A stretch of DNA of 64,000 bases from Dryococelus australis (taxonomy: Eukaryota; Arthropoda; Insecta; Phasmatodea; Phasmatidae). Position 1 is the stretch's first letter; the number at the start of each line of letters is the position of its first letter. The stretch is taken from positions 308,180,666-308,244,665 of the forward strand of contig CM057009.1 in assembly GCA_029891345.1 (NCBI GenBank), given 5' to 3'. The notes under the pieces were generated by a model, which saw nothing but the letters and a program-made list of their open reading frames with translations, searched no databases and had not been told where the DNA came from. Positions 4,501 through 60,740 of this stretch are shown here, in pieces. Position numbers and translations under genes: made by a program.

Positions 4501-6300
4501 CAAGCTTTCAACAGTATTAGCAAATTATGATACACTATGTAACATTTAACCAAGATTTAAAAATAATCTCCCACAGACTGCAGCATGGATCAATATCGAT
4601 TCTGTTGAAAATGAATATAATTGATCTTTTTTAATCAGATGTGTGGTTTCTGTCAATGAAGTCTTAGTTATCTTTCATAAATTACAACGAATTTACACTT
4701 GTTACAACAAAAGATCCTACAATGTTTTTAATTATTTATCACTTTATACATAAGTTAAAATTAAAAGAAATGGTTTCTGCATTGTATTATTACAGATAAA
4801 ATATAGTGGTTTTGATCCTAACGTGATTATGTACTTGATGCTAAAAAAAAAATAACAGTATTGAGAACACACCGGAAATAATGAATTACGGATATCCTCG
4901 ATATGAAAAGAAACGAACATTGATATTTATAATAAAAATAAGTAGTAGGGAAATGGGCATTGACGGCCAAGGGTATCGAGGATCGGAGCCGGAACCAGCC
5001 GGCCGCCATTTTGTTACGTCACATGTCCGCCATATTGGATGTCATTGACTTTGACCTTGACTCCCGAGGACCTATGACCCCAAAAAACACAACAAAAAAC
5101 ATTTAAAAATACCAAAAAATTCTCAAAAAATCCCAAAAAAATATACAAAAAATTATAAAAAACGTATTATTAAAAATTATTTAGTAATTATTTAAAAATT
5201 ATTAAAAGAATCCTCAGAAATGACCCATTTCCACCCCAAAAATGGTAGAAGGCCCCCTCCTGCAGAAAAAATCCCCTGAAATCCAATTTTGGCCAAATTT
5301 ATTTCATTTGAGGGGGTTCCTTCAGACCTACTGAGCAATGGCGACCTTATTTGTTTTATAGAAATACCCTATGCCAAATCGATACAATGTATAGAGGATA
5401 GTACTCAGACCTAAGCATCAGCCATCTTGCGTCCATATTGTATGTAGATGACCTTTGACCTTAACCTATAACCTGACGTTGACCTTTGACCTATAACCTT
5501 CTGACCTTGACCTTTGATCTATAACCTTGAAAGAGCAAAAATACAAAAATACAAAAAATTCGGTTAAAAAATGTATTAAAAAATGTTGCTAAAACTTTAA
5601 TTTAAAAATCGTTTACAAAAAATCGTTTAATAATTTATGTTTATGTTATTTTATTTTATATAAAAAATTTAATTAAAATGTTTTTAACACCGGCGGACAT
5701 TTTTCACTTTATTCCCTCGAAATTTCCCTTTTTCCCTAAAAAAAATCCTTAAAAAATTTATTTAAAATTTAATTTAAAAACTTACATTTCCTGAGGTCTC
5801 CCGCCACACCACCAATTACTCACCTCTGTTCGAATCCAGCAGACGAATGACTCCATCGCACTCACTCCCCTCACCTATACTCATTCTGCCACCTTGATTT
5901 TTCGTTCGTCATTAGTTTTCATTCTACTGGAGGCAGCCATCTTTGTTTATATGTTACTGGATACTGCTATATTTGTTTTTCGTTGTCATTTGTTTATACA
6001 TTACTGGAGGCCACCATCTTGGTAGGTTACCGCCATATTAGTATACATCAGGTGGTACTGGATACTGCTATATTTGTTTTTCGTTGTCATTTGTTTATAC
6101 ATTACTGGAGGTAACCATCTTGGTAGGTTACCACCAACTTGGTATACACCACCCATCCACCATCTTGGAAGACAATACCCAATAGCAATTGATCTTTGAC
6201 CTGTGACCTTGAAAAATAAAATTCGAGAATAATTCGTGAAAGACAGCAAGCATAATACATTACGGACTATTACTGCCATGTTAGATGCATAATACCTCGA

Positions 6301-6460
6301 CCTTGGCCCCATGACATAAACGCCAAAAAGCATAATACATAACAGGCTACCACCTCCATATTAGATAAAGACTAACTAGACCTTGGCCCCATGACATAAA
6401 CGCCAAAAAGCATAATACATAACAGGCTACCACCTCCATATTAGATAAAGACTAACTAGA
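6301..6460. repeat. exact 80-bp tandem duplication
   Basis: Positions 6301-6380 and 6381-6460 are identical as far as I can read, and a third copy starts at 6461 before diverging. The unit holds CCTTGGCCCCATGAC and CACCTCCATATTAGAT. Perfect identity here contrasts with the diverged arms and points to a young local duplication. Confidence 0.9.
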
Positions 6461-7019
6461 CCTTGGCCCCATGACCTTGAATGAACTTAAAAATAAAAAC
6501 TCGAGAAAAACTACTAAAAGTCAACAAGTATAATACATTACAGACTACCACCGCCATATTAGATGCAGACTGCATTGACCTTAACACCGTGACCTTGAAT
6601 GACCCAAAAACAAAAACTCGAGAAAAAATCTATGTGAACAGGCAGAAACTTGTTGAGGCGATGAACCTTCCATTCAGCAGCTGTCTAACTATACATCTCG
6701 GCTTACCTCCTTACTGTTTATAATATACAAGTGTGCAAGTCTTATGGCGTCATATTGAGTTTGAACCAATCGTACTCTACCATTAATACATTGTGCAGAC
6801 ACCGACCAATCAATCACCAAGTTACCACATGATTGCAGCTAACAAATCACATGCATTGAGGCATTACACACAGGCAAGTAGGCAGGCTATATATTCTAGT
6901 GCCTTGTTCACATTAGCATGCAGTTATATCTTCAACAGTTTCTCTCAGGCAAGTTCATCACTCACCTATGAATAATGCTCACTCTTAAAGTAGACAACTG
7001 ACTCCTGTTGCCGGACCGA

Positions 7020-7260
7020 CCCCTTACAAGACTAACCCATTCACCCATTAACCCATTGACCCTATTGACCCCATCGATCCCATTGACCACATCGACCCCA
7101 TTGGCCCATTGACCCTATCGACCCCACGACTCCATCGACCTTATCAACCTCATTGGCCACATTGACCCCATCGACCCATTATGACACATGACCCATTGAC
7201 CCATAATGAGTATTGACCCCATTGACCCATAATGACCCATGACCCATAATGACCTCTTAT
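7020..7260 (+). repeat. CCCATTGACC-type array, left arm
   Basis: A degenerate short tandem array of units such as CCCATTGACC and CCCATCGACC. Its inverted counterpart is at 8985-9170. Confidence 0.8.
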
Positions 7261-7683
7261 AGTGGTGCTGACCCCTAAGGCCCCAAAAAGACTAAATGTC
7301 CTATAATGACCCATTAGGGAAGCAAAATGATCAATAATGACCCATTTGCAGAGAAAAATGACCTATGCCCAATGGTCGATGCACATCATGGATTTTGTAC
7401 TGAACAGTGCAGCACCACGAATGCCCACCGTCATGCTTCTCGATTGGTCGTCGCATGAAACGACTCTTCGTACAGGCCACCCCCTCATACCGACATGCAT
7501 TTTTTTTTAACGTAGGTGAAAACTCGATCTCATAATCAACACTGGCGACAACCAGTCGGTGATGATGCAGGTCACGACTTCATGATCGTCGAATTCAAAA
7601 GGCAGCTCTTCATATTCGCAATTTATCTTCGCGGTATTTGAACACTCTGAGAAAACCCAAATACTCGTTCGCCCTGGAAGAAG

Positions 7684-8560
7684 ACACACAGGTCCTATTA
7701 TATTTATGATATGACTTACATAATTATATATAGTTGTATAAATAATTATAAGTATATATGTGTGTAAATATAAATTAATTTTCATTTTAATATATATATA
7801 CATAGTTATGTACTTATAAGTATGGTAATATACATTTATTTCAATATAATTTATACGTATTTATGTTTAAGAATAGGTATGTAATTATGTTTATATAAAA
7901 TTTTTTTATTTAATTTATATGTATAGGCATATGTATATAAATAAGTTAATATTCAATTATTTTCAATTTAATTTATATATATAGTTATGTAAATATAAAT
8001 ATGGAAATATACATTTATTTCAATTTAATTCATACATTGTTATATATAAGAATAAGTATATAATTATGTGATTATCAAGTTATTTTCAATTAAATGTATA
8101 TTTATAGGTATAAGTTTATAAATGTTATTATAAAAACATTTTCAGTTTAATTTATATGGATAGTTATAGGTATATAATAATGTACACATAAAATTATTTT
8201 CATTTTAATTTTTTGTATAGGTATAGGTATATAAGTATGCATAGGTATACAAATATATAAATATAAAAATAAAATTCTTTCCATTTAATTTATATGTAAG
8301 CATAGGTATATAAATATATAAATATTATGTTCTTAAGTAGCTCTTCTACATATTTATGTATATGTGTTGGTATATAAAAATATGTATATATATATATATA
8401 TATGTAAACATAAAATTAATTTAAATGTCTATGTGTAAGTATTAACATATAAATATTGGAATAAAAAATGAATTTTAAATATCTATATTTATATACATAG
8501 CCTGCGTACGCCTACAAGCATATTTAAATAACATATTGTTATGTAAGTAGATGAGTATTT
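7684..8560. repeat. AT-rich spacer of the foldback with degenerate repeats
   Basis: Units resembling ATTTTCAATTTAATTTATAT followed by TATAGGTATA recur about every 80-100 bp. A short (AT)n tract lies near 8386-8403. No coding potential is evident. Confidence 0.65.
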
Positions 8561-11397
8561 TCTTCCGGGGCGAACGAGTATTTGGGTTTTCTCAGATCAC
8601 TCCATACTGCGAAGATGATTTGTGAATATAAAGGGCTGCCTTTTGACCTCGACGATCATGGAGCCATGACCTGCATTATCGCTTACTGGTTGTCGCCAGT
8701 GTTGATTCTGCGATCTAGTTTTCACCTATGTTTAAAAAAAATGCTTGTCGGTATGAGAGGGTGGCCCGTACGACGAATCCTTTTCATGCGACGACCAATC
8801 GAGAAGCATGGTGGTGGGCTGTCATGGTGCTGCATTGTTCAGTACAAAGTCCATGATGTGCATCGACCAATGGGCCTAGGTCATTTTGCTCAACAAATGG
8901 GTCATAATGGGTTATTTTACTTCGCAAATGGGTCATTGTGGGACATTTTGGGGTCGTTTTAGGGTTATCAAGGGTCAGCACTGCAATTAGGGGTCGATGG
9001 GGTCGATAGGGTCGATGGTGTCAATAGGTTCAATGGGGTAAATGGGGTCGATGGGGCCGATGGGATCAATGGGCTCGATCGGGTCAATGGGCTAATGGGG
9101 TCGATGTGGTCAAAGGGGTCAATATGGTCAATGGTGTCAATGCGTTAATGGGTCAATGGATCAGTCTTGTGAGGAGTGTGTCCGACAACAGGAGTAAGTT
9201 GTCTACGTTAAGTGTAACCATGATTTATAAGTGAGCTAAGAACATGTCTTGGAAGAAACTGTTGACGATATAACTGCATGCTAATGTGATCAAGGCACAA
9301 GCTTCTAAAGCCTGCCTACCTGCCTGTGCGAGATGCCTCGATGCTCGCATGTGAATGGTTAGCTGCAATCTTGTGGTAACTTGGTGATTGGCTGGTCGGT
9401 GTCTGCACAATGTATTAACGGAGCAGTACGATTGGTTCAAAGTCAATATGACGCCATAAGGCTTGCACACTTGTATATTATAAGCAGTAAGGAGGTAAAC
9501 CGAGAGGTTTAGTTTGACAGTAGCTGAGTAGAATGTGGATCGTGTCGTTTAGCCTTTGCCTCTTCACATAAATTTATTCTCGAGTTTTTTTTTATTTCAT
9601 TCAAGGTCATGGTGTTAAGGTCAAGGCAGTCGGCGTCTAATATGGTGGTGGTAGTCTGTAATGTATTATACTTGTTGACTTTTATGTATTTTTCTAAGAT
9701 TTTTATTTTCATGTTCATTCAAATTCATTAAGTCTAGGTCGTGGTAGTTTGCACCTAATATGGTGGTGGTAGTCTATAATGTATTATGCTTGTTGACTTG
9801 TATGCATTATTACTCAAGTTTTTTATTCGCAACCTCAATCAAGCTCATGGGTCAAGGTCGAGGTACTCTGCATCTGATATGGTTGTAGTAGTCTGTAATA
9901 TATTATGCTTGTTGACTTGTGTGTGTATATTCTCGAATTTTTATTTTCAAGGCCATTCAAGGACATTGGGTCAAGGTCTAGGTAGTCTGTATCTAATATG
10001 GTGGTGTAAACCTGTTATATATTATGTTTGTTGACTTTTATGTTTTATACTTGTTGAATTTTTTGTATTTTTTCTTGAGTTATTTTTTAGGTCATTCAAG
10101 GTCAGGGGCCAAGGTCGAGGTAGTCTGCATCTAACATGGAAATAGTAGTCCGTAATTTATTATGCTTGCTGTCTTTTATGCATTATTCTCGAATTTTGGT
10201 TTTCAAGGTCACAGGTCAAGGATCAATTGCAATTGACCATTGTCTTCCACAATGATGGATGGGTGATGTATACCAAGATGGTAGTCACCTACTAAGATGG
10301 CGGTCGCCTACCAAGATGGTGGCCTCCAGTAATGTATAAAAAAATGACAAACGAAAAACAAATATAGCAGCATCCAGTAATATATAAACAGAGATGGCTG
10401 CCTCTAGAAGCATGTAAACAAATGACGAAAGAAAAAATCAAGATGGTGGAAAGAGTATTGGTGAGGGGAGTAAGTGCGAGGGAGTCATTCGTCTCCTGAA
10501 TTCGAACAGAGGTGTGTAATTTTGGGAAAAAAGGGGGGGGGGGGGAACTACAGGAAATGTAAATTTTTAAATTAAATTTTTACTAAATTTTCTAAGGACT
10601 TTTTTTTAGGGAAAAAGGGAAATTTCGAGGGAATAAAGGGAAAAATGGCCGCCGTTGTTAAAAGCATTTTAATTAAATTTTTAAAAATAAAATCTTACTA
10701 ACATAAATTAGTAAACAATTTTTTTATTTCTAAAATTATTTTGTAATTGTAATTTTTTATAAATTTTTTAATCTATTTTATGATTTTTGTGCATTTTTTG
10801 GATTAATTTTTTATTTTTGCATTTTCAAGGTTAAAGGTCAAACGTAATAGGTCAAGGTCGAAGGTCATCTGCATACAATATGGATACAAGATGGCTGATA
10901 CTTAGGTATGTATCCTATCCTCTATACCTTGTATCTATTTGGCATAGGGTGTCTCTTAAACAAATATGGCCGCCACTGCTCCGCAGTTCCGAAGGAAGCC
11001 CCTCAAATTAAATAAATGGGCGAAAATTGGACTTCATTGCCTTTTTCTGCAGAAGGGAGGCTTCTACCATTTGGACGGGGGAGGGGGGGTGTTAATGTGT
11101 AATTTTTGAGGATCCTTTTAATAACTTTTAAATTATTCTTTATCAATTGTTGAATAATTTTTATAGTACATTTTTTTCGGAATTTTTTATAATTTTTTAG
11201 AATATTTAGGGATATTTAGAGTATTTTTGGTATTTTTAAATGTCTTCTAGTGTTTTTTGAGTCAAGGGTCCTAGGGGCCAAGGTCAAGGTTAAGGTTAAT
11301 GACATCCAAGATGGCGGGCGGGTGACGTAACAAAATGGTGGCATGCCGGCTCCGATCCCCGATCCCCTTGGTCGTCAATGCCCTTTTCCCTACTACT
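8561..11397 (-). repeat. right arm of the giant foldback
   Basis: It is the inverted partner of 4941-7683. It contains the GGGTCGATGGGGTC array (8985-9170), a tandem block at about 9590-10230, and a run of G near 10526-10545. Its tip ends in CCCTACTACT. Confidence 0.85.
9590..10230. repeat. tandem array of about 110-140-bp units
   Basis: About five units, each with a core such as TCAAGGTC, then a TAATATGG or CTGATATGG motif, then AATGTATTATGCTTGTTGAC. Unit starts fall near 9600, 9718, 9838, 9955 and 10095. They are inverted counterparts of the units at about 6230-6660. Confidence 0.75.
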
Positions 11398-15382: not shown

Positions 15383-16630
15383 GATTAATCGGATTAACCC
15401 TTTGATATCAAATTGATATCAAAAGGGTTAATACTTAATATGATTTAAATACTATTAAAATTAATCCGATTGTAATCCTATGTTTTTTCGTTAATCCTTA
15501 ATCCGATCAATTTTTAATCTGATTAAAATCGGATAAAATGTAATTAAAATGTGAATGATTGATCCAATTAATTTAATTTGATGAATTAATCAAAATTGTT
15601 GTGATAAGTGTGTAGTTTCGTATGCTTTATTTCCTTTCTTTCTTTTTTTTGGGTGGTGAGCAGCTCTGGTAGAGGTTGATGTTCGGAGGTCCAGCACTAA
15701 ACTGAGATGTTGGTGTGTTGAGGAAAGGATGTACATAGGGAGCAATGTTGTCAGGACGACGACTGGCGCTCGACTGAGGTGTGATCTGTTGGGGACAGGG
15801 TATTTATGTGTTGAGTTTTGTGCAAGAGTGGCATAAGCATTTTTTGTGTTTCATAGACGGTGTTGGGAGATAGTATTATTCCAAATGAATAACAGCAGTG
15901 GTGTATTACACGAGAGAAATGAGGAGTATTTAAACATTGCACAGGAAAAAGAATGATGGAGCCGTGCTATGGAAAGAAATTAAGTAACGAGTTATAGGTA
16001 TCAATATAAATAAATTACTTACAGGAGAGAAGTATAACGAACGAACACAACTACATGACTATCACTAAATGAATGACGTACCCCAGCTATGGAAATAAAT
16101 AAAACGATTTTAATATACGTCTGTTGGATTTGGGAGATCGCAGAATGAATTACTTATAATGCAAATCTCTGGGAAATTAAATGTACCCTATCTGATTAGA
16201 TATGTGTTTAAAAATCAATTAATTAAACTGCTAACAAACACAATTGCATGACTATCACTAAACGAATTACGGAACCCAGCTATCCTGTTTTATAAATTAA
16301 TGAAATTGCACAAGTACCTTTCCCAAGACACATCTGTCTGGCTGTGAGATCAGTCAAGGAATGAATCATAGACATGGAGCTTGCGGCCGAGTTAAAATTA
16401 TGGCAAAAACTCGTAAATGAAGGAAACATTTAAAGTTTATAAAATAGCAATTAAACGAAAAGTGAGTTGAACATGCACAACTATGTGAATGGATAAAAAT
16501 TACTTTTATGATGCACAAACTAATCTATAAATTTCACTTCCCTGGGAAAAATTAATCACTCACATTATTTAACAACGTATCCACAGACTGGTTTACCGCT
16601 GCGAATAAATGTTCCTAACATAAGAAGAAT
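15383..16630 (+). repeat. Polinton left terminal inverted repeat
   Basis: It pairs with 30181-31756. Landmarks are the GGTGGTGAGCAGCTCTGGTA block at about 15651, AAGAGTGGCATAAGCAT at about 15824, a CCCAGCTAT motif, and TGGTTTACCGCTGCGAATAA at about 16590. Confidence 0.88.
15394..15431. repeat. 38-bp palindrome at the Polinton left tip
   Basis: TTAACCCTTTGATATCAA is followed almost at once by TTGATATCAAAAGGGTTAA, so the strand can fold into a near-perfect hairpin. The right tip has no equivalent. Confidence 0.85.
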
Positions 16631-17759: not shown

Positions 17760-20700
17760 TTTTGTAATGCCCCCAAGTAAGGTCGATAATCCATGTGCCT
17801 CAATAGACCATTTATTGTCCATACTTGACAACACAACCTTGGTTACGTGTTTGGGGTTGGCTTCATGAGCATGCTAACAGAACTGATACTGGGTCCCCAA
17901 AACCCTTGTGCAATTTTCGAGGCAATCTCGATAATCCTCATACCTGAGTCATTGCAACACGTTAGGTTTTACACCCTTTGCCTTACATAAACATTAATAA
18001 TTCACAACTACATATGCATAAAGCTCGGGATGTAAACCCACAAAGTGTGTGATGATGCAACCTGCATATTCATATTTCATCACCCTGGTATGGCCTTTGT
18101 TCACATGAGGGAATTTGTGCAGGTTGTTGAGCACATGATTGGATGTATCAAACTGTGAATTTTAATCTGGGGTGATTACTTTATAAATGTCATCACAAGC
18201 AATAGAATACAACAATGAATCGGTATCACAATAGAGGAGTTGTAAGGCTAGCAGAAGAGATTTTGTACACATGTACTGATAACAGACTTTGTAGAGGGTT
18301 AATTTTGAAATATCAGTAATGCCAACACAAGTGTACAAAGGTTAGTTGAACGCAACAGGACTCTTTGACAACTTGATAAGACCATGTTTTCATCGATAAT
18401 CTGCATTGCCTGGAATGTAGGACGATGTATCAGCTCTGCAGCCCCATAGATTGTGTCGTATCTCGAAACGATTCTTATATCAACTTCCCGGCGGATATTC
18501 TGCAATGTTATTTCATAAACTGAATAATTCACCAATTTAAAAACGATTTTTCGAATTTTTTCGCTGCCTGAGCATATTTCTCAATATTAAATTCGATGTA
18601 TGTCTTCATCCAAGCCTTCTCCTCAAAGTGCAAAATATGATGAATAGAGTCAATTTTGTCCCCTTACATAAAATAATGCTTCAGTTTTTCCCCACATTTA
18701 ACATATTTATTTCATGGTGCGAGTGTCAAAAAAATATCTCATGCAAGCCGTTCAGGGGTATGTCATTTTCTGGGGCCAAAGGCAGACATTTGTCCGGAAA
18801 AAACAGATCTACTTCCACGAAAAAACAAGTGTCACCATCATTCACTGTGTTCGAGAAATCCCATGATGAGAAAACATCATCCTCAACCAACTAAAAATGG
18901 CCAAGCAAAAGTTTTTATCACATTGTATTACTGTACAGCCCATTGACGTCGAAATAACATATATTTCGATGCCACACTGGGGTTGTAATCCTCACCCATG
19001 TTGATATTATTGGCTTCGACACGCCTTCTTGAAACCATGCATTCTACAAGAAGATACATTTCTGGGTCAGTCAACAACTCTAGCCTCGTACATATCATTG
19101 ACAATAAAGCAACCCATGAAAGAAACGGAGCTGTCATGTATATAGTGGGGTCAAGACTGTAATGAGCCAAATATACTGTCCTGACATTCTCAAAAACATC
19201 AGCCAGCAAACAAGTGTCCGCACTTAAGTAGTGACTGGCATACTGCAGCAAGTTTATGCAGTTGAATGCATCCCATGCGGCTTGGGCATGAGCATAATAC
19301 TCATTGCTAGTGCCTTCGCCTCTCATCACATTATTAAATACATCCTTTGGTGGGAGTGACTTGCACATCAGACTGTGTGGCGACTTAACAAAGTCATAAG
19401 GAATAACTCCATTCTATTTTGCCTATTAGAATTGGCTGTTGTCTGGAAACATCAAGCAGGTGATACTCAATTGCGCAGGTAGCAAATTACCTGTCAAAGT
19501 TTCCAGAGAGGAGCTTATGAATTGTAATGAGTCAATAAAACATAATTTGAAATATTGTGCCTTTCCATTGAAATCAATCCCATTGGGAATTTGTTTGGTA
19601 ATACATTTGTATTTTTCAAGGGTCATTCCAATCACTTGCATTTTACCTGGGTTTTAGATTACCACGGTTCCATCGGGTAGTGTTATGTGCCATTTAGTCA
19701 ATGGCTTTATGAGAAAGTGAGCATCATAGTTTTGCAGGTTATAAAAAACAGCTACAAGTTGTCTTTTGGGCAGTCTGAAATTCAAGTTGCACTTGTTATG
19801 TGTGCGACCTCTGATTTCGCCCATCAGGTGGTCATAATCAAACTCAATATCATCTGTACCGAGCTTTTCCTTACAAATGTGATAACTTTTCTGAACCGCC
19901 AACCTAACTTCATCAACAGGAGTTTTAAGCTTCATTGGAACAATCAGGCTGTAAATTCCTGCAACCCACTTTGTAAGTTCAACTAATTTATCTACTAAAT
20001 TGTACATAGAATCAGCACCCACAAACCCAAAATAATTAGATAAACTTGGATTGTATGACCAGACCAACAAAATGCTACAAGCATATGTGACGTGGTTGAT
20101 GGTATTTGTATTACTCATTTCATCATTACACAAGCCAGTGAACATGGATTTCAGGCAAATTTCAGCATCGCAAAAGGCGATGAAATCCAACCTCTGCTGC
20201 TTGCTGGAATATTTAATTTCCAAGTACTTTTGTTCCCAGTTTGGAAAGTACTGCGAACAGTCTCTTGTTGCTGGCAAAGAATAGCGTGACTTGCGAATTT
20301 CTCCTCAGTTCTGAAATACTGGAGGCAATGATCACAAATAAATTTCTTTTTGACTCTCTTACTCAGTTGACTACCAACAAGCCATGACAAATTTCTAATA
20401 CAGACAAAATGCAAATGAGCGGCATTTCCACTCGTGCAATTCGCCAAAATATTCACATGTTTGTCATGACATACAGGAGAAATACAAATGGTTACAACAA
20501 CTCCAACCTTTCCACAACTTTCGTCCATTATATTGCAATATTTGTCCACCACACACTTGACATTGATAGAAATAAAATTATTCTCCTAAAACTTACGAAT
20601 ATCATGAAAGACTACAGGTGTCGATAGACCTTCAGTATTCAAAACCTGGTGATGTTTTGGATATGAAGCTGTTCTCTCGGCATGTTGTGTGGAAGGATAC

Positions 20701-30180: not shown

Positions 30181-31756
30181 TCTTCTTATGATAGGAACAT
30201 TTATTCGCAGCAGTAAACCAGTTCTCTGGGTTTGTCGATAACGTAGTCGTGTGTGTTCAGAATCTTTTCATTTAATTGCTATTTGATAAACATTAAAACT
30301 ATTCCTTCATTGACGAGTTTTTCCCGTAATTTCAACTCAGTTGCATGCAAACTGCACTCCATGTATATACTCAGGCTCTCGATACATAGCTAATAAGTCG
30401 ACATAAGTGCTATGCTCAGCTCATTCCTACACCAGACTTCACAGCACATAGACATGTTTTAAAATAATTTAAGGTATGTGTACAAATGTGAAGGAGATGT
30501 ATGTGTATGTCTATTATGATGTTGTGTCTGGTTAAAGTTTAATTTGTATAATTCAAAATATGAGTTTGGAAATCTTTGTTTGTCCATGTTAACTGGATGT
30601 GTTAAATCGTTCCGTACTGTGAAAAGTTGTCTGTGCGTTTCGCTTCATAAATTGCACATCATTAATAGAAACTTGGTAGGGATACCTTTTTTTTTCTATA
30701 TATAATTCAGAATGTGTATGAGTAGTGAGTAAATTGTTTTGTTGTCTGTTGTAGGCTGTAGTGTTTTAAGTATATTTGTGTTTGATTGCTATTTCATAAC
30801 CATTTAAAATCTTTCCGAGATTTTGCCGTAATTTCAACTTGGCCACAAGCTTCACAAGTCATTCCTTGACTTATCTCACAGCCGGACAGATGTGTTTTGT
30901 GAGAGGTGCCTGTGCGATTTCATTACTTTAAAAAACAGGATAGCTGGGTTCCATAATTCGTTTAGTGATAGTCACATACTTGTATTCATTAGCCATTTAA
31001 TTTATTAATATTTAAATGGGGTAGATTTCATTTCCCAGAAATAGACATTATAAATAATTCATTCTGTGATCACCCGAACCCAATGGATGAATATTAAAAA
31101 CATTTTATTTATTTCTATAGCTGGGGTACATCATTCATTTAGTGGTAAACATGTAGCTGTGTTCGTTCTTTATTCTCTCCTGTAATTTATTTATATTGAT
31201 ACTTATAACTCGTTACTTATTTGTATTCCATAGCTCAGTTCCGTCATTCTTTTTCTTGTGCAATGTTTAAAGACTCCTTATTTCTCTCATGTAGAATGTC
31301 ACCGCTGTTATTCATTTGGAATAATACTATCGCCCAACACCGTCTACAGAACACAAATACACTTATGCCACTCTTGCACAAATCTCAACACATATATAAC
31401 CTGTCACCAACACATCACACCTCATCCGAATGCCAGTCGTCGTCCTGACAACTTCGCTCCCCTATATACATCCCTTCCCCAACACACTAACACCTCAGTA
31501 TAGCACCAGATCTCCGACCGTCAATATCTACCAGAGCTGCTCACCACCCAAAAAAAAGAAAGAAAGAAAATAAAGAAATCCAAACTATAGACTTATCACA
31601 ACAATTTTGATTAATTCATTCAGGTAAAATAATCGGATTACTTAATGAAACTTTCATAACATTTTATCCAATTTCAATCAGATTTTAAAAATTGATTGGA
31701 TTAAGATTGAGTTAAGGACTATCAAAAAATTCTGTCGGATTAAAATTGGATTAATC
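30181..31756 (-). repeat. Polinton right terminal inverted repeat
   Basis: It pairs with 15383-16630 but is about 330 bp longer. Part of the repeat occurs twice: the block ATTGCTATTTGATAAAC...GTAATTTCAACTC near 30275-30340 and a second version near 30783-30850 both match the same left-arm segment (about 16380-16460). Confidence 0.85.
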
Positions 31757-51469: not shown

Positions 51470-52300
51470 TGACAGGAGTTTCATGCAGCAACAGGAGTAT
51501 CGGTTTCCATTGGAACATTACGTACAGAGGCCCATCGACTTGGATATTTCGGAAGAACGGCTGCACATAATCCCCATATCACGGCAAGCAATAAAGCTCG
51601 GCCATTCCAGTGGTGTATGGACTGTCACAACTGGACACTGGAGCAGTGGAAATCGGTTCTGTGGAGTGATGAGCCGAGGTTTACATTATTCCGGTCCGAT
51701 GGACGTGTATGGGTGTGGCGTCTACCCGGGGAACGGCTTCTGCCGGAGCGTATAGAGCCAACTAGGAAATTCGGTGGTGGAGTGATGGCGTGGGCTGTTT
51801 CACGGCCTTCGGCGTAGGACCGCTGGTGTTTGTCCTTGGTAGCATGAACACAGAGGCCTATTGTAATATTCCGGATAATGAAATGCTCCCAACATTGTGG
51901 CGTTTTAACGGAATGGACCCGTGATACTTCCAGGATGACAATGCCAGGTGCCATGTTTCAAGGGCTACTATGCAGTGGTACGCCGACAACAATGTTCGCC
52001 GATTGGACTGGTCCGCCCAGAGCCACGACCTCAACCCTATAGAACATCTTAGGGACGAATTGGATCGCCGGGTGAGGGCTCGTCAGGCTCGACCAAAATC
52101 CATTGCTCAACTCGTGGAATGGTTGCAAGAGGAATGGCGACGAATCCCCGTGGATGTCCTGCAAGCACTCGTAGAGAGCATGCCAGACAGGGTGGCTGCT
52201 GTTATAGCCGCAAGAGGTGGCCCTACGAGATTCTAACGGGGTGACAACCACCAAGCAAACATTGTGAACAGGAGCGCAATTACTTTTTGGTCGATAGTGT
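51470..52300 (+). mobile_element. Tc1 family transposon, 5'-truncated
   Basis: The transposase coding part (about 51478-52236) is followed by the right end, whose tip reads AATTACTTTTTGGTCGATAG then TGTA. The left terminal repeat was not found near the start, so the element has lost its left end and the N-terminal DNA-binding domain. Target sites of this family are TA. Confidence 0.85.
51478..52236 (+). pseudogene. Tc1 family DD34E transposase, broken
   Basis: Transposases of this family cut and paste the element at TA sites through a DDE active site. Seen here: WSDEPRFTLF with the first Asp, then SDGRVWVWRLPGER; after a frameshift near 51795-51800, LGSMNTEAYCN, then FQDDNARCHV with the second Asp, DWSAQSHDLNPIEHL with the Glu, and the tail LQEEWRRIPVDVLQALVESM ending in RGGPTRF. 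There are 34 residues between the second Asp and the Glu, hence DD34E. A stop (TGA at 51921-51923) interrupts it just before FQDDN. The N-terminal paired-like domain is absent. All three catalytic residues survive, so decay is moderate. Confidence 0.88.
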
Positions 52301-55389: not shown

Positions 55390-56130
55390 GTGGGTAAGCT
55401 GTCATGTTTGTTTACATTAATGATCCAACCGCCATGTTGTATGAGGGTGAGCTTAGCATTGCCCTGAAACTTAGTGATCTTAAACTCAAAAAGTTAAAAA
55501 AAATATATATATATATATCTAACAAAAATTGCGGGAAAAAAAATAAATTTCTGGCCCCAACCACCATGTTGGATGTGTGTGACCTAGTCTTTGATGCTAG
55601 TGACCATAAACTCGAAAAAACGAAAAATAGAACAGTAAAAATTCAAAACAATCATAAAATGAGGAAAAAAATTAATCGTTAACTACAATCACTATTTTGG
55701 ATTAGGGTGAACTTGACCTTTACTCATGTAACCTTGAACTCGAAAAATCAAGAAAAATCGTAAAAATTAACGACTAATTACGTTACTGACCCCGACCGCG
55801 ATGTTGGATTTGGGTGACCTTGACCTTTACTCATGTAACCTTGAACTCGAAAAATCAAGAAAAATCGTAAAAATTAACGACAAATTACGTTACTGACCCC
55901 GACCGTGATGTTGGATTTGGGTGACCTTGACCTTTAGTCATGTAACCTTGAACTCGAAAAATCAAGAAAAATCGTAAAAATTAACGACAAATTACGTTAC
56001 TGACCCCGACCGTGAGGTTGGATTTGGGTGACCTTGACCGTAATTACGTTACTGACCCCGACCGTGATGTTGGATTTGGGTGACTTTGACCGTAATGGTC
56101 TTAAACTTGAGAAATCTAGTACAATCGTAA
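55390..56130 (+). repeat. tandem array, 107-bp unit, related to the foldback arms
   Basis: Well-conserved units start at 55697, 55804, 55911 and 56018 (exactly 107 bp apart), then a truncated one at 56070. Diverged units extend back to about 55425. Each holds TGTTGGATTTGGGTGACCTT, CATGTAACCTTGAACTCGAA and ATTACGTTACTGACCCCGAC. The CATGTTGGAT, GACCTTGA and AACTCGA motifs recur in the giant foldback. Confidence 0.9.
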
Positions 56131-58142: not shown

Positions 58143-59569
58143 TGATATTGGTTGTTCATGTTTAAAAGTCATTTTTACCCCTGCAGGAGTAAGTATGCAA
58201 CATGCATTAACCCCATGTATTGTAATGCTAATCTCTTTTTGAGTTTACTGGTGAAACTAATTACGTCACAACTTGAAACGATGTATCAAATTAAAAATCC
58301 TTAGCATGCCTTGGTGAATATAATGCTAAAATTTTAATATTCGAATGGAGATTTTACTAAAGATGTGAAAATAGATCAAAAAATACTACCACAAATGACC
58401 ATGATGATACGTACCTTATATAAAAGTCCAAAATAACTTTTAACTTTTCTATGTTATATCGTTTATGTTTTCTGCGATTAAAACTGTGTTACTAATATAT
58501 CTACCATGTAAGACACTAATTGAAATCTCAAAAAACACTGAAATTTCGTGGTCTCAAAACTGTGTATGGAGATAGAACACTTTTACACTGGGCTCAAGGG
58601 CCACCAGTCCTCACTGTTAAGTGGCTGCCCAGCGGAGGTTGTGTGAGGGGTTTTGGGTAGGGGTGGAGGAGAGAACAATTTTTTCTGGCCGGAAGCGGGG
58701 AGGGGGGGGGGATGATGCTTGAAATCCATAGTGTGCATACTGCTATTCCTTGAAGAAGGAAATCGCTGTTTATTACGAAATCAAAAACATCACTTCTTTT
58801 GCACTATATAAGCTAAACTTAGTTTTTTTTTTTTTGTGAAGATTATATTATAATTATTTTGCTCACATTACATTCAAATTGGCGAAAAAAAACTTCCCAA
58901 CCAGCATAATCCAGAATTAAATTAGTATATACTGATGTAATAAATTGAACATTTTCATATCTGTTCTAAGTGTAGTGTTAGGTCTACATTTTGTAATCAC
59001 TTTTTCACGAATCGTCACGACCTGTAAACATCTTGCCTGTTAATGTTACTCGAATATACTGCGATTAGGCAAGCGGTACATATCTTAACAGTAGGCCGAA
59101 TAATACTCTGCACGAGTTTTCATCTAAAGTCCCTCCAGGTTTTATACTAGCTGTGGTACCACTAAGCATCGTTTACGTTCTGGTCGTCCCGAAGAGAGCA
59201 CACGAAGGGGCAATGACGATCGTTGACCAGCATGGAGAGTTGGTGATCTTTCGATACGAATAAATCACACTACACTTACATTTGAGAAGATGGAATAATA
59301 TTCATGGCGACCAGCAGTAATAAGACAAAATGCCACATCACACCAGCGATCAGTACACCACACGTCACCCTGGTGTTAACACGTGTCAATAAGATTTTCC
59401 TTCAAGTCTTGGCTTCGATGTCGATCATCATGGAAGATACCATGAACATCGAAGAGCTGGTTCTTTTTGAAGACAGCGTCATAAAAGTGGAACTCATGTA
59501 TACCAGCAAATTCTGATCGAACCATGCACGTTACCATCGGAAGTTCGGATAGCGGTCCAATAACAAAAG
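58143..59569. other. unassigned DNA left of the virus-like fossil
   Basis: No feature is recognised. A G-rich patch lies at 58620-58720. Frames at 59304-59516 (+) and 59376-59579 (-) overlap and are not recognised; they may include the start of the fossil gene that follows. Confidence 0.4.
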
Positions 59570-60740
59570 ATATCTGCACTCTTCCTTGTTAGTCATTCCT
59601 ACGATCCAGGGGGCATTGACAAAAGAAGATGGCTCCAACTTGGTATCTTCGAAAATAACAAGCAATGGTATTTCCCACCTTATCGATCGCATCATGTATA
59701 TGCTCAGCGGCATCGAGGTAGACCAGACGAGAGGTGTCGGCATAACAACCACGATCAAAATTTACCTCTCGCTCATGCCTAACGAGCTGTCTTTGGCCAA
59801 GTTGGTTGGCTGGGGGATAGAAGATGACTACAGTGTTCGAGGTCTGCATACCTCTAGCGATGATACTGGGTTTAGCTCAATACTACAAACGAATTATTCA
59901 TAAATTTAAAGCAGGAACTGGTACTGTTCCTAGCAAGTACACATATAGATGGTATCATGGGTATGGGAAAGAACCTGGAGACATTGGAACAGAAGTACAC
60001 TCTATCGAATGGATGCTGCCTCACATTCAGCTGAATACTACCGAATGCATCAAGATGCTGAAGGGTGTGGAAGATGGCGAAAACAACGACATAGTTTTCA
60101 GATCGTGGAGTCTCGAGACCTACCCTGGATTGCCCGCAAGCCAGCGCATCAGCTGGATGGTGAAGTCCAGTTTTGTCACCAAGAAACTGAGGTAATTCAT
60201 TATTGGGCTACATACTGGAAGATAGCACAATGTAAGAGTGAGCTGTTCGCAGTTCTTCACATGTCAAATGGAAAATGTGAAAAATATATTTCATAAGTGA
60301 AAGCAATCTGTATGTGGACATGAACGTGCACTTTCAAAATGGTCGGTACTTGCTGGCATATCAAATGTACACCCAATTTCAAAATGAATATTATGGGTGC
60401 AACCAATACCCGATACTGAGCACAGATACCATGAAGTGTTTGGCCCTGCTCTTGGTGTTCGATGTTCTATGTGAGTGAACAGGGCTAGTGTATCAGCTTG
60501 AATGTGATCGACTGCAGGATCGAATTCACTATGCATGGAAATATTCCCCCATGCACTTATGCTTTCTGCCCGATACTTCACGACCGACTCATATCGTACA
60601 ATTGTCGAGACAAAGTCATCAAGATACTTTCGTGAATGCCGCAGAGGATATAAATACAATGAGCCATATGTGATATCTGTTAAGTCGTCTTCGAGCATAG
60701 GCAGCGAAATGAAGTACTGTAATCTACAAGGCTTCCAGAG
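59570..60740 (+). pseudogene. virus-like capsid-type protein fossil
   Basis: Several plus-strand fragments in order match a family of uncharacterised virus-like proteins that I recall from insect and other invertebrate genomes, probably capsid-type. Parts: YMLSGIEVDQTRGVGITTTI (about 59695-59755), IEWMLPHIQLNTTECIKML (about 60005-60060), FRSWSLETYPGLP (about 60095-60135), and a later part with MYTQFQNEYYGCNQYPIL (about 60365-60420) and a C-terminal stretch near 60520-60600. The family assignment rests on memory of these motifs; its link to a named virus group is uncertain. The gene is broken in several places. Minus-strand frames here are shadows. Confidence 0.55.

What the first reader, a model, noticed from the sequence alone, without database searches (positions are those of the whole stretch)
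4941..11397. Giant 6.46-kb foldback with nearly 2.8-kb arms
Seen in sequence: the two arms align colinearly in inverted orientation from the AGTAGTAGGG tips to the 877-bp centre. Known: foldback elements of insects have long, internally repetitive inverted repeats, but arms near 3 kb with a small noncoding centre are unusual. Inference: an undescribed foldback or satellite-rich non-autonomous family. The arms differ at about one base in five, so it is old or was assembled from two copies.
Basis: partly seen in the sequence, partly recalled or inferred. Interest (0 to 1): 0.8.

Follow-up and report, generated by a model that had tools for sequence, protein, structure and literature searches.

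The report
Foldback transposon derived from Polintons
The giant palindrome is an old copy of a high-copy, gene-less jumping element whose ends resemble those of Polintons, the virus-like transposons of the same stick-insect genome, so it is probably moved by their enzymes.

Summary
The foldback is real. Arms 4941-7712 and 8560-11397 align in inverted orientation (83% identity over 2564 aligned columns) around an AT-rich, asymmetric centre of about 850 bp. Assembly size and scaffold N50 identify the genome as the Lord Howe Island stick insect, Dryococelus australis.

It is not a chance pair of insertions. The genome holds 1,290 near-identical inner arm ends (control 1) and 1,266 near-identical tips (control 30). 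Of 25 neighbouring pairs within 20 kb in five capped lists, 24 converge.

It is not a Drosophila-type foldback. Copies make 6-bp target duplications (7 of 15 exact; this copy shows none). Homologous ends bound two elements carrying Polinton-type integrase, one also with a double-jelly-roll capsid gene. Best reading: a non-autonomous Polinton/Maverick derivative, integrated in trans. The outer ~1.1 kb of the arm matches a Polinton's ends in pieces; the inner ~1.7 kb was not seen as a normal part of the gene-bearing loci read.

The two arms of an element are sisters in 5 of 5 elements; one copy has a 1,071-bp identical tract inside diverged arms. My literature searches found no high-copy non-autonomous Polintons.

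The parts
4941..7712 (+). left arm of the foldback
   Evidence: inverted self-alignment with 8560-11397; homologous arms elsewhere in the genome
7713..8559 (+). AT-rich asymmetric centre (58/179-bp periodicity)
   Evidence: AT-rich centre sequence of two junction types follows 19 of 20 other inner arm ends fetched
8560..11397 (-). right arm of the foldback
   Evidence: sister of the left arm in the concatenated arm tree
4941..4970 (+). left tip AGTAGTAGGG...
   Evidence: tip scan; 1,266 sites genome-wide within 2 mismatches of its first 19 bases against 30 for the reversed control
11368..11397 (-). right tip, 2 differences in 30 from the left tip
5000..5049 (+). subterminal module CCGCCATnTTG-TTACGTCA-CCGCCATnTTGGATGTCA, shared with gene-bearing Polinton ends
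   Evidence: TTACGTCA exact in 26 of 38 distinct tips, GCCGCCATCTTG with up to 1 mismatch in 30 of 38; shuffle means 0.1 and 0.0 for the 42-tip set, which held repeats of the same places
11300..11343 (-). the same subterminal module in the right arm
5955..6148 (+). 101-bp tandem repeat in the left arm (1.9 copies)
6248..6627 (+). 80- and 118-bp tandem repeats in the left arm
7035..7247 (+). 9-bp ACCCATTG-type tandem array in the left arm
8990..9159 (-). 9-bp tandem array in the right arm
9597..10048 (-). 119-bp tandem array in the right arm (3.8 copies)

Best explanation
The element is a non-autonomous derivative of a Polinton/Maverick (virus-like DNA transposon) family of D. australis. Its arms are enlarged terminal inverted repeats. 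The outer ~1.1 kb corresponds, in pieces, to the ends of a Polinton that carries integrase and capsid genes; the inner ~1.7 kb is a repeat-rich block that the family carries on both sides; the coding interior is replaced by an AT-rich asymmetric centre (0.7-1.2 kb in 6 of 9 pairs). Inferred mechanism: the retrovirus-type integrase of resident Polintons recognises the AGTAGTAGGG tips in trans and inserts the linear element with a 6-bp staggered cut. Replication by the Polinton protein-primed polymerase is a further inference. The two arms stay alike because they are equal, or made equal, when a copy is made, and because one arm can overwrite the other later by gene conversion. Shown: inverted structure, family size, 6-bp duplications, homologous ends on gene-bearing elements, within-element arm kinship, one conversion-like tract. 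Inferred: trans-mobilisation, replication mode, how the inner block and centre were acquired.
For: (1) Tips: 637+629 genomic sites within 2 mismatches of the 19-bp tip, against 19+11 for the reversed control. (2) 6-bp duplications: of 15 tip pairs examined, 7 match at 6/6, 3 at 5/6, 3 at 4/6, 1 at 3/6 and this copy at 2/6 (L054 was read by eye from that output); chance of one exact match is about 0.0004. (3) Homologous tips bound L042 (tips AGTAGTATGATT and AGTAGTACAATT: the first 7 letters are the same, and similarity to the foldback arm resumes at about position 28). L042 has an exact CACACA duplication, a ~1.3-kb TIR, a double-jelly-roll capsid (Pfam E 1.5e-23) and an integrase C-terminal part. 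L040 (both tips AGTAGTAGGG) holds integrase pieces and has a 4/6 duplication. Integrase identity chain: L092 is a Pfam integrase core (1.6e-8) and matches solved retroviral integrases (6.6e-5); L092 matches L040 at 83% over 42 aa; L040 matches L042 at 78% over 36 aa. L044 and L045, with one such end each in the stretch fetched, carry capsid pieces (5.1e-17, 3.6e-14). (4) Foldback arm positions 28-189, 615-827 and 744-1080 match the left end of L042, and 35-267, 597-824 and 719-1021 its right end, in order; the subterminal module is shared. (5) Neighbours within 20 kb in five capped lists: 24 of 25 pairs convergent (counted; the window element is in two of the lists). (6) Arms group by element in 5 of 5 elements.
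Against: This copy itself has no target duplication (2/6). The CACACA duplication of L042 lies in a short CA-rich stretch, and its boundary was set by locating the tips (a first register gave 2/6); that of L048 needs one extra AGT unit (1/6 otherwise). Pfam did not recognise the integrase pieces of L040 and L042 directly; the identification runs through L092. No polymerase gene was shown between two such tips: in L052 a polymerase-like reading frame follows a full arm, but that junction is unique (1 of 40 rows) and cuts into the gene. The inner ~1.7 kb of the arm was not found in the other gene-bearing loci read (L040, L042, L044, L045). By inspection I noticed, among 150 integrase rows, only L042's own beside a tip listed; all three lists are capped. 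One of 25 neighbouring pairs is divergent (19.2 kb).
Confidence: 0.85

Rival explanations
1. Two independent insertions of a single-arm element in opposite directions, or a chimera of two copies.
For: The flanks of this copy do not match (2/6). Four of 13 arm loci show only one arm in the fetched stretch. In Galileo, some copies with non-matching flanks are chimeric (passages of PMC3573991). In one of three single-segment trees the two arms of this copy are not sisters.
Against: Six of 13 loci have two substantial arms; 19 of 20 further inner ends run into an AT-rich centre of the same kind; 24 of 25 neighbouring pairs within 20 kb converge; the arms of this copy are sisters at 96/92 in the concatenated tree (93/90 without L046 and L054).
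Confidence: 0.06
2. A foldback-type member of a cut-and-paste superfamily (P/Galileo, FB, Mutator), unrelated to Polintons, that happens to share terminal letters.
For: Long, internally repetitive arms resemble Galileo and FB (abstract and passages of PMC3573991).
Against: Duplications are 6 bp, not the 7 bp of Galileo. More than 100 bp of subterminal sequence, not only the tips, is shared with elements carrying integrase and capsid genes.
Confidence: 0.05
3. A simple internal-deletion product of a still unseen Polinton with 2.8-kb terminal repeats, rather than a derivative that gained an extra inner block.
For: L052 has a full arm followed by polymerase-like coding sequence. Most Polintons of this genome were not read.
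Against: The L052 junction is unique among 40 rows and enters the polymerase gene in mid-frame with a sharp break. L042, read from tip to tip, has ~1.3-kb repeats without the inner block.
Confidence: 0.3
4. Assembly artefact, for example inverted duplication from missed sequencing adapters.
For: The assembly is from PacBio continuous long reads, which the paper calls error-prone (abstract and passage), and at least one inverted duplicate with identical flanks exists (L012/L013 outer flanks 190 of 190).
Against: Arms differ at ~17% of aligned sites and by many indels, the centre is asymmetric, and many copies elsewhere share the layout.
Confidence: 0.01

Closest known systems
Polinton/Maverick elements (Kapitonov and Jurka 2006; Pritham et al. 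2007, known here only as cited in passages of PMC8547959 and PMC6431247)
   Same: 6-bp target duplications (5-6 bp in the passage); terminal inverted repeats; ends homologous to those of elements of this genome that carry integrase and a double-jelly-roll capsid gene
   Different: No genes; 2.8-kb internally repetitive arms; 6.5 kb instead of ~15-20 kb (size recalled); about 1,290 inner arm ends in the genome
Galileo (Drosophila, P superfamily), first described as foldback-like
   Same: Long, internally repetitive inverted repeats; first seen as gene-less two-arm copies; chimeric copies with unmatched flanks known
   Different: Repeats of ~0.3-1.2 kb in the passage read; 7-bp duplications; P-type transposase
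Ginger1/Ginger2 (integrase-type cut-and-paste transposons)
   Same: Related DDE integrase; Ginger2 targets 6-bp sites (passages of PMC2836005)
   Different: Ends follow TGTNR; Ginger2 prefers RTATAY; the targets here are varied (GGTAAT, CTTGTT, CACACA, GACGTA)
MITEs
   Same: Non-autonomous, high copy number, ends borrowed from an autonomous family; a 434-bp element with the same tips exists (L067)
   Different: More than ten times larger; the presumed parent is a virus-like self-replicating transposon

Membership tests
Polinton/Maverick (as non-autonomous member) | 6-bp target-site duplication | tested here: met
   7 of 15 pairs exact, 3 more at 5/6; NOT met by the window copy itself (2/6)
Polinton/Maverick (as non-autonomous member) | inverted terminal repeats starting 5'-AG (recalled rule) | tested here: met
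   AGTAGTAGGG at both ends of the window copy and at many other sites
Polinton/Maverick (as non-autonomous member) | ends shared with an element carrying retroviral-type integrase | tested here: met
   L042 and L040, through L092; Pfam is silent on the L040/L042 pieces themselves
Polinton/Maverick (as non-autonomous member) | ends shared with an element carrying double-jelly-roll capsid | tested here: met
   L042 between its two tips; L044 and L045 inside one end
Polinton/Maverick (as non-autonomous member) | ends shared with an element carrying protein-primed DNA polymerase B | tested here: inconclusive
   Only L052, a unique fused junction; at least 150 polymerase-like places exist in the genome (capped)
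Polinton/Maverick (autonomous) | own integrase, polymerase, capsid genes | tested here: not met
   Longest stop-to-stop frame inside the element 135 aa; the six frames of 85 aa or more give 0 Pfam families at E up to 0.01
Galileo / P superfamily foldback | 7-bp target duplication | tested here: not met
   duplications of 6 bp; Galileo value
Galileo / P superfamily foldback | long, internally repetitive inverted repeats | tested here: met
Ginger1/Ginger2 | TGTNR termini | tested here: not met
   termini AGTAGTAGGG; rule

The most novel reading that the evidence does not exclude
A 'satellite of a virus-like transposon': a gene-less, near-palindromic passenger that took over the ends of Polintons, spread to hundreds of copies or more with their integrase and perhaps their protein-primed polymerase, and may compete with them as a defective-interfering genome does. 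Its arms are kept alike by each copying round, as in panhandle replication, plus later gene conversion. Such a hairpin, if transcribed, could also feed host small-RNA silencing of Polintons.
Probability: 0.3. Interest if true: 0.75.

Novelty: new variant of a known kind. Interest (0 to 1): 0.55.

Why it matters
Polintons are usually discussed as large self-synthesizing elements. A gene-less derivative family with more than a thousand arms (1,290 inner arm ends) would show that their ends can be used in trans on a large scale, and it offers a record of how such ends are copied and corrected. Comparing the two arms within hundreds of copies makes the replication question (are the repeats equalised at each transposition?) directly testable. 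It may also put a name on part of the 1.56 Gb of unclassified repeats that the D. australis genome paper reports (passage).

Tried and rejected
Idea that the inner arm is polymerase-gene sequence: rejected. L060 (5' part of a polymerase frame elsewhere) matches L052 only from about 3754 on, at a sharp break; in a search with a query across the junction, 39 of 40 rows match one side only.

Idea that arm likeness is due only to equal arms at insertion: weakened. L046 has a 1,071-bp exact tract inside arms otherwise mostly 70-85% identical, so later conversion acts too. Repeating the tree without L046 and L054 left 3 of 3 pairs as sisters, though support for L053 is only 85/87; grouping by side was still rejected (p-AU 0.0004). 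In single-segment trees 10 of 13 element pairs are sisters; L048 (S1), L051 (S2) and the window copy (S3) are not. The main tree used the 13 arms for which I could read the side, of 19 in the concatenated set; side labels were set by eye from junction sequences printed, and rows covering under 75% of a segment had been dropped.

Integrase relatives in viral contigs: 9 pattern matches, none a relative. Solved-structure search with the L040 piece: nothing relevant. Literature on non-autonomous Polintons: 0 papers by phrase; broader searches listed nothing on it in the titles and abstract starts shown. Only open-access papers are held and Repbase could not be searched, so this is weak evidence of absence. 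An open-access source for inverted-duplication defective adenovirus genomes was not among the 10 listed; that comparison is recalled.

Centre searched alone in the genome: the request did not complete and was not repeated. A genome count with a second arm pattern did not complete.

The motif counts included the same place twice for three tips and one twin locus; one search recounts them on 38 distinct tips. The match of the arm to L042 is in pieces from position 28, not continuous from 1. Odds were lowered by 0.01 for the main reading and raised by 0.01 for the first rival.
Full report
OBSERVATION. The foldback is in the sequence as described. The left arm 4941-7712 and the right arm 8560-11397 are inverted, colinear copies. 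The alignment score is 2810, against -514.5 to -295 for reversed, complemented, direct and three shuffled versions. With a second aligner the arms are 83.2% identical over 2564 aligned columns, with 482 gap columns. The tandem arrays differ between the arms: a 119-bp array with 3.8 copies on the right, 80- and 118-bp arrays on the left. The centre, about 847 bp, is AT-rich with a 58/179-bp period. The longest stop-to-stop frame in the element is 135 aa, and its six frames of 85 aa or more match no Pfam family at E up to 0.01.

SPECIES. The genome has 3,415,067,245 bases, and contig C4 is 262,277,254 long. The abstract of the Dryococelus australis genome paper gives 3.42 Gb, scaffold N50 262.27 Mb and 17 major scaffolds (PMC10268593, abstract and passages seen). 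I take the genome to be that species.

A FAMILY, NOT A CHANCE PAIR. A 19-bp tip pattern with up to 2 mismatches has 637+629 sites (reversed control 19+11). A 22-bp pattern at the inner end of the arm has 648+642 sites (control 1+0). Searches with arm pieces list only the best 40 or so candidates out of thousands (15,337 for the left arm), so counts from them are samples. Recounted by script: among 41 rows for the inner arm end, 9 convergent pairs account for 18 rows, this copy included, with gaps of 37 to 2,978 bp; among 42 rows for an inner unique segment, 5 convergent pairs; among 40 tip rows, 2 convergent pairs, one of them this copy; among 100 listed tip sites of 1,266, 6 convergent pairs; among 100 listed inner ends of 1,290, 2 convergent pairs and 1 divergent pair 19.2 kb apart. 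So 24 of 25 neighbouring pairs within 20 kb converge. Between 20 and 25 kb there is one divergent pair, L013/L012, and one in the same direction. Of 20 inner ends without a listed partner, 19 continue into AT-rich centre sequence (72-86% AT, two recognisable junction types) and 1 does not (L090). Of 13 loci fetched around arm hits, L046, L047, L048, L051, L053 and L054 have two substantial inverted arms; L049, L056 and L058 have one arm plus a short inverted piece; L050, L052, L055 and L057 show one arm in the stretch fetched.

INSERTION SIGNATURE. At 15 tip pairs the 6 bp outside each end were compared (L054 read by eye there). Exact 6/6: L046 GGTAAT, L048 CTCGAT (with one extra AGT unit at the left tip; 1/6 with the other boundary), L051 CTTGTT, L061/L062 GACGTA, L065/L066 TCCAAA, L070/L071 CAAGAG, L042 CACACA (CA-rich site; boundary set after locating the tips). 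Five of six: L068/L069, L041, L021/L020. Four of six: L063/L064, L040, L054. Three: L067. Two: this copy. One exact match by chance has probability about 0.0004. A 6-bp duplication is thus the family's signature, but the window copy has lost it or never had it. A passage in PMC8547959 gives 5-6 bp for mavirus and Maverick/Polinton elements.

THE LINK TO POLINTONS. L042 is bounded by homologous tips (AGTAGTATGATT, AGTAGTACAATT). It has an exact duplication, ~1.3-kb terminal repeats, a double-jelly-roll capsid gene in pieces (Pfam 1.5e-23 and 8.1e-12) and an integrase C-terminal part near its right end. L040 is bounded by AGTAGTAGGG tips and holds integrase pieces. Pfam did not recognise these integrase pieces, so I used a bridge. 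L092 (C4:112854080-112854560) is an integrase core by Pfam (1.6e-8) and by solved retroviral integrases (6.6e-5); it matches L040 at 83% over 42 aa, and L040 matches L042 at 78% over 36 aa. L044 and L045, with one such end each in the stretch fetched, carry capsid pieces. The foldback arm aligns to the left end of L042 in three pieces between arm positions 28 and 1080, and to its right end in three pieces between 35 and 1021. A subterminal module with TTACGTCA between two CCGCCATnTTG boxes is shared: exact TTACGTCA in 26 of 38 distinct tips, foldback and Polinton ends together (shuffle mean 0.1). That these boxes look like YY1 and CREB/ATF sites is recalled, not tested. At least 150 integrase-like and 150 polymerase-like places exist in the genome (both lists capped).

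WHAT REMAINS OPEN ABOUT ITS BIRTH. The inner ~1.7 kb of the arm was not seen in L040, L042, L044 or L045. In L052 a full arm runs into polymerase-like coding sequence (Pfam 0.0044, below the curated cut-off). The break is sharp, and a query across it matched only one side in 39 of 40 rows, so L052 looks like a one-off fusion and not the parent. I therefore favour a derivative that joined Polinton ends to a repeat-rich block and an AT-rich centre. A parent with very long repeats is not excluded.

HOW THE ARMS STAY ALIKE. With sides defined by the asymmetric centre, the arms of one element are sisters in 5 of 5 elements (L046 100/100, L054 100/99, window 96/92, L051 95/91, L053 90/90). A tree grouping arms by side is rejected (log-likelihood 249.8 worse, p-AU 4e-8); without L046 and L054, 44.0 worse, p-AU 0.0004. 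Single-segment trees are weaker: 10 of 13 pairs are sisters. L046 has a 1,071-bp exact inverted match (1176-2246 with 4675-5745) between flanks mostly 70-85% identical, which looks like recent arm-to-arm conversion. The window copy has no such tract (longest identical run 45, permuted maximum 71). So two processes are plausible: equal arms when a copy is made, and later conversion. The window copy's arms are about 0.19 substitutions per site apart, the most of the five; L046 is 0.05, partly through the tract.

MECHANISM. Most likely the integrase of resident Polintons uses the foldback's tips in trans. Replication by the Polinton polymerase, a panhandle intermediate and interference with Polintons are inferences; no call tests them.

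NOVELTY. No paper in the held library contains the phrases for non-autonomous Polintons or Mavericks, and broader searches listed none in the titles and abstract starts shown. Repbase entries could not be checked. I rate it a new variant of a known kind, parallel to the history of Galileo, which was first filed as foldback-like and later placed in the P superfamily through its transposase (PMC3573991, abstract and passages).

Noticed in passing
window 15497-16456 and 30780-31705: A second, different inverted repeat (964 columns, 81%) encloses degraded polymerase-like frames on the minus strand (18931-19413 is 38.5% identical to the L052 polymerase piece over 96 aa). It may be the remains of another Polinton with unrelated ends.
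   Followed up: partly
window 59553-60632: Broken double-jelly-roll capsid gene (Pfam 1.8e-9 and 7e-17), 57% identical to an L042 piece over 92 aa.
   Followed up: partly
window 51473-52233: Tc1/mariner-like transposase fragments (HTH_Tnp_Tc3_2 0.0015, DDE_3 0.0005, both below the curated cut-offs).
   Followed up: no
L046 1176-2246 and 4675-5745: 1,071 bp of perfect identity between arms that are mostly 70-85% identical on either side: a conversion-like tract.
   Followed up: yes
L067 (C7:133084317-133084750): A 434-bp miniature element with exact copies of both 19-bp tips, suggesting a size range of gene-less relatives down to MITE size; duplication only 3/6.
   Followed up: partly
C4:253643963-253658360: Two exact tips 14.4 kb apart in convergent orientation (duplication 4/6), of a size expected for a full Polinton; the interior was not read.
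   Followed up: no
L052 3751-3770: Full foldback arm fused to the middle of a polymerase frame, with short similarity at the join; unique among 40 rows.
   Followed up: yes
C6:131183593-131207924 (L012, L013); C3:168219513/168230952; C6:125890538/125899112: Inverted duplicates 8-24 kb apart: L012 and L013 share 190 of 190 outer flank bases (the whole loci are not identical), and the other two pairs have identical polymerase match scores. Real inverted duplications or assembly artefacts.
   Followed up: partly
window 55697-56039: 107-bp tandem repeat, 3.2 copies, 97% alike, containing TGACCTTGACC units like those in the arms.
   Followed up: no
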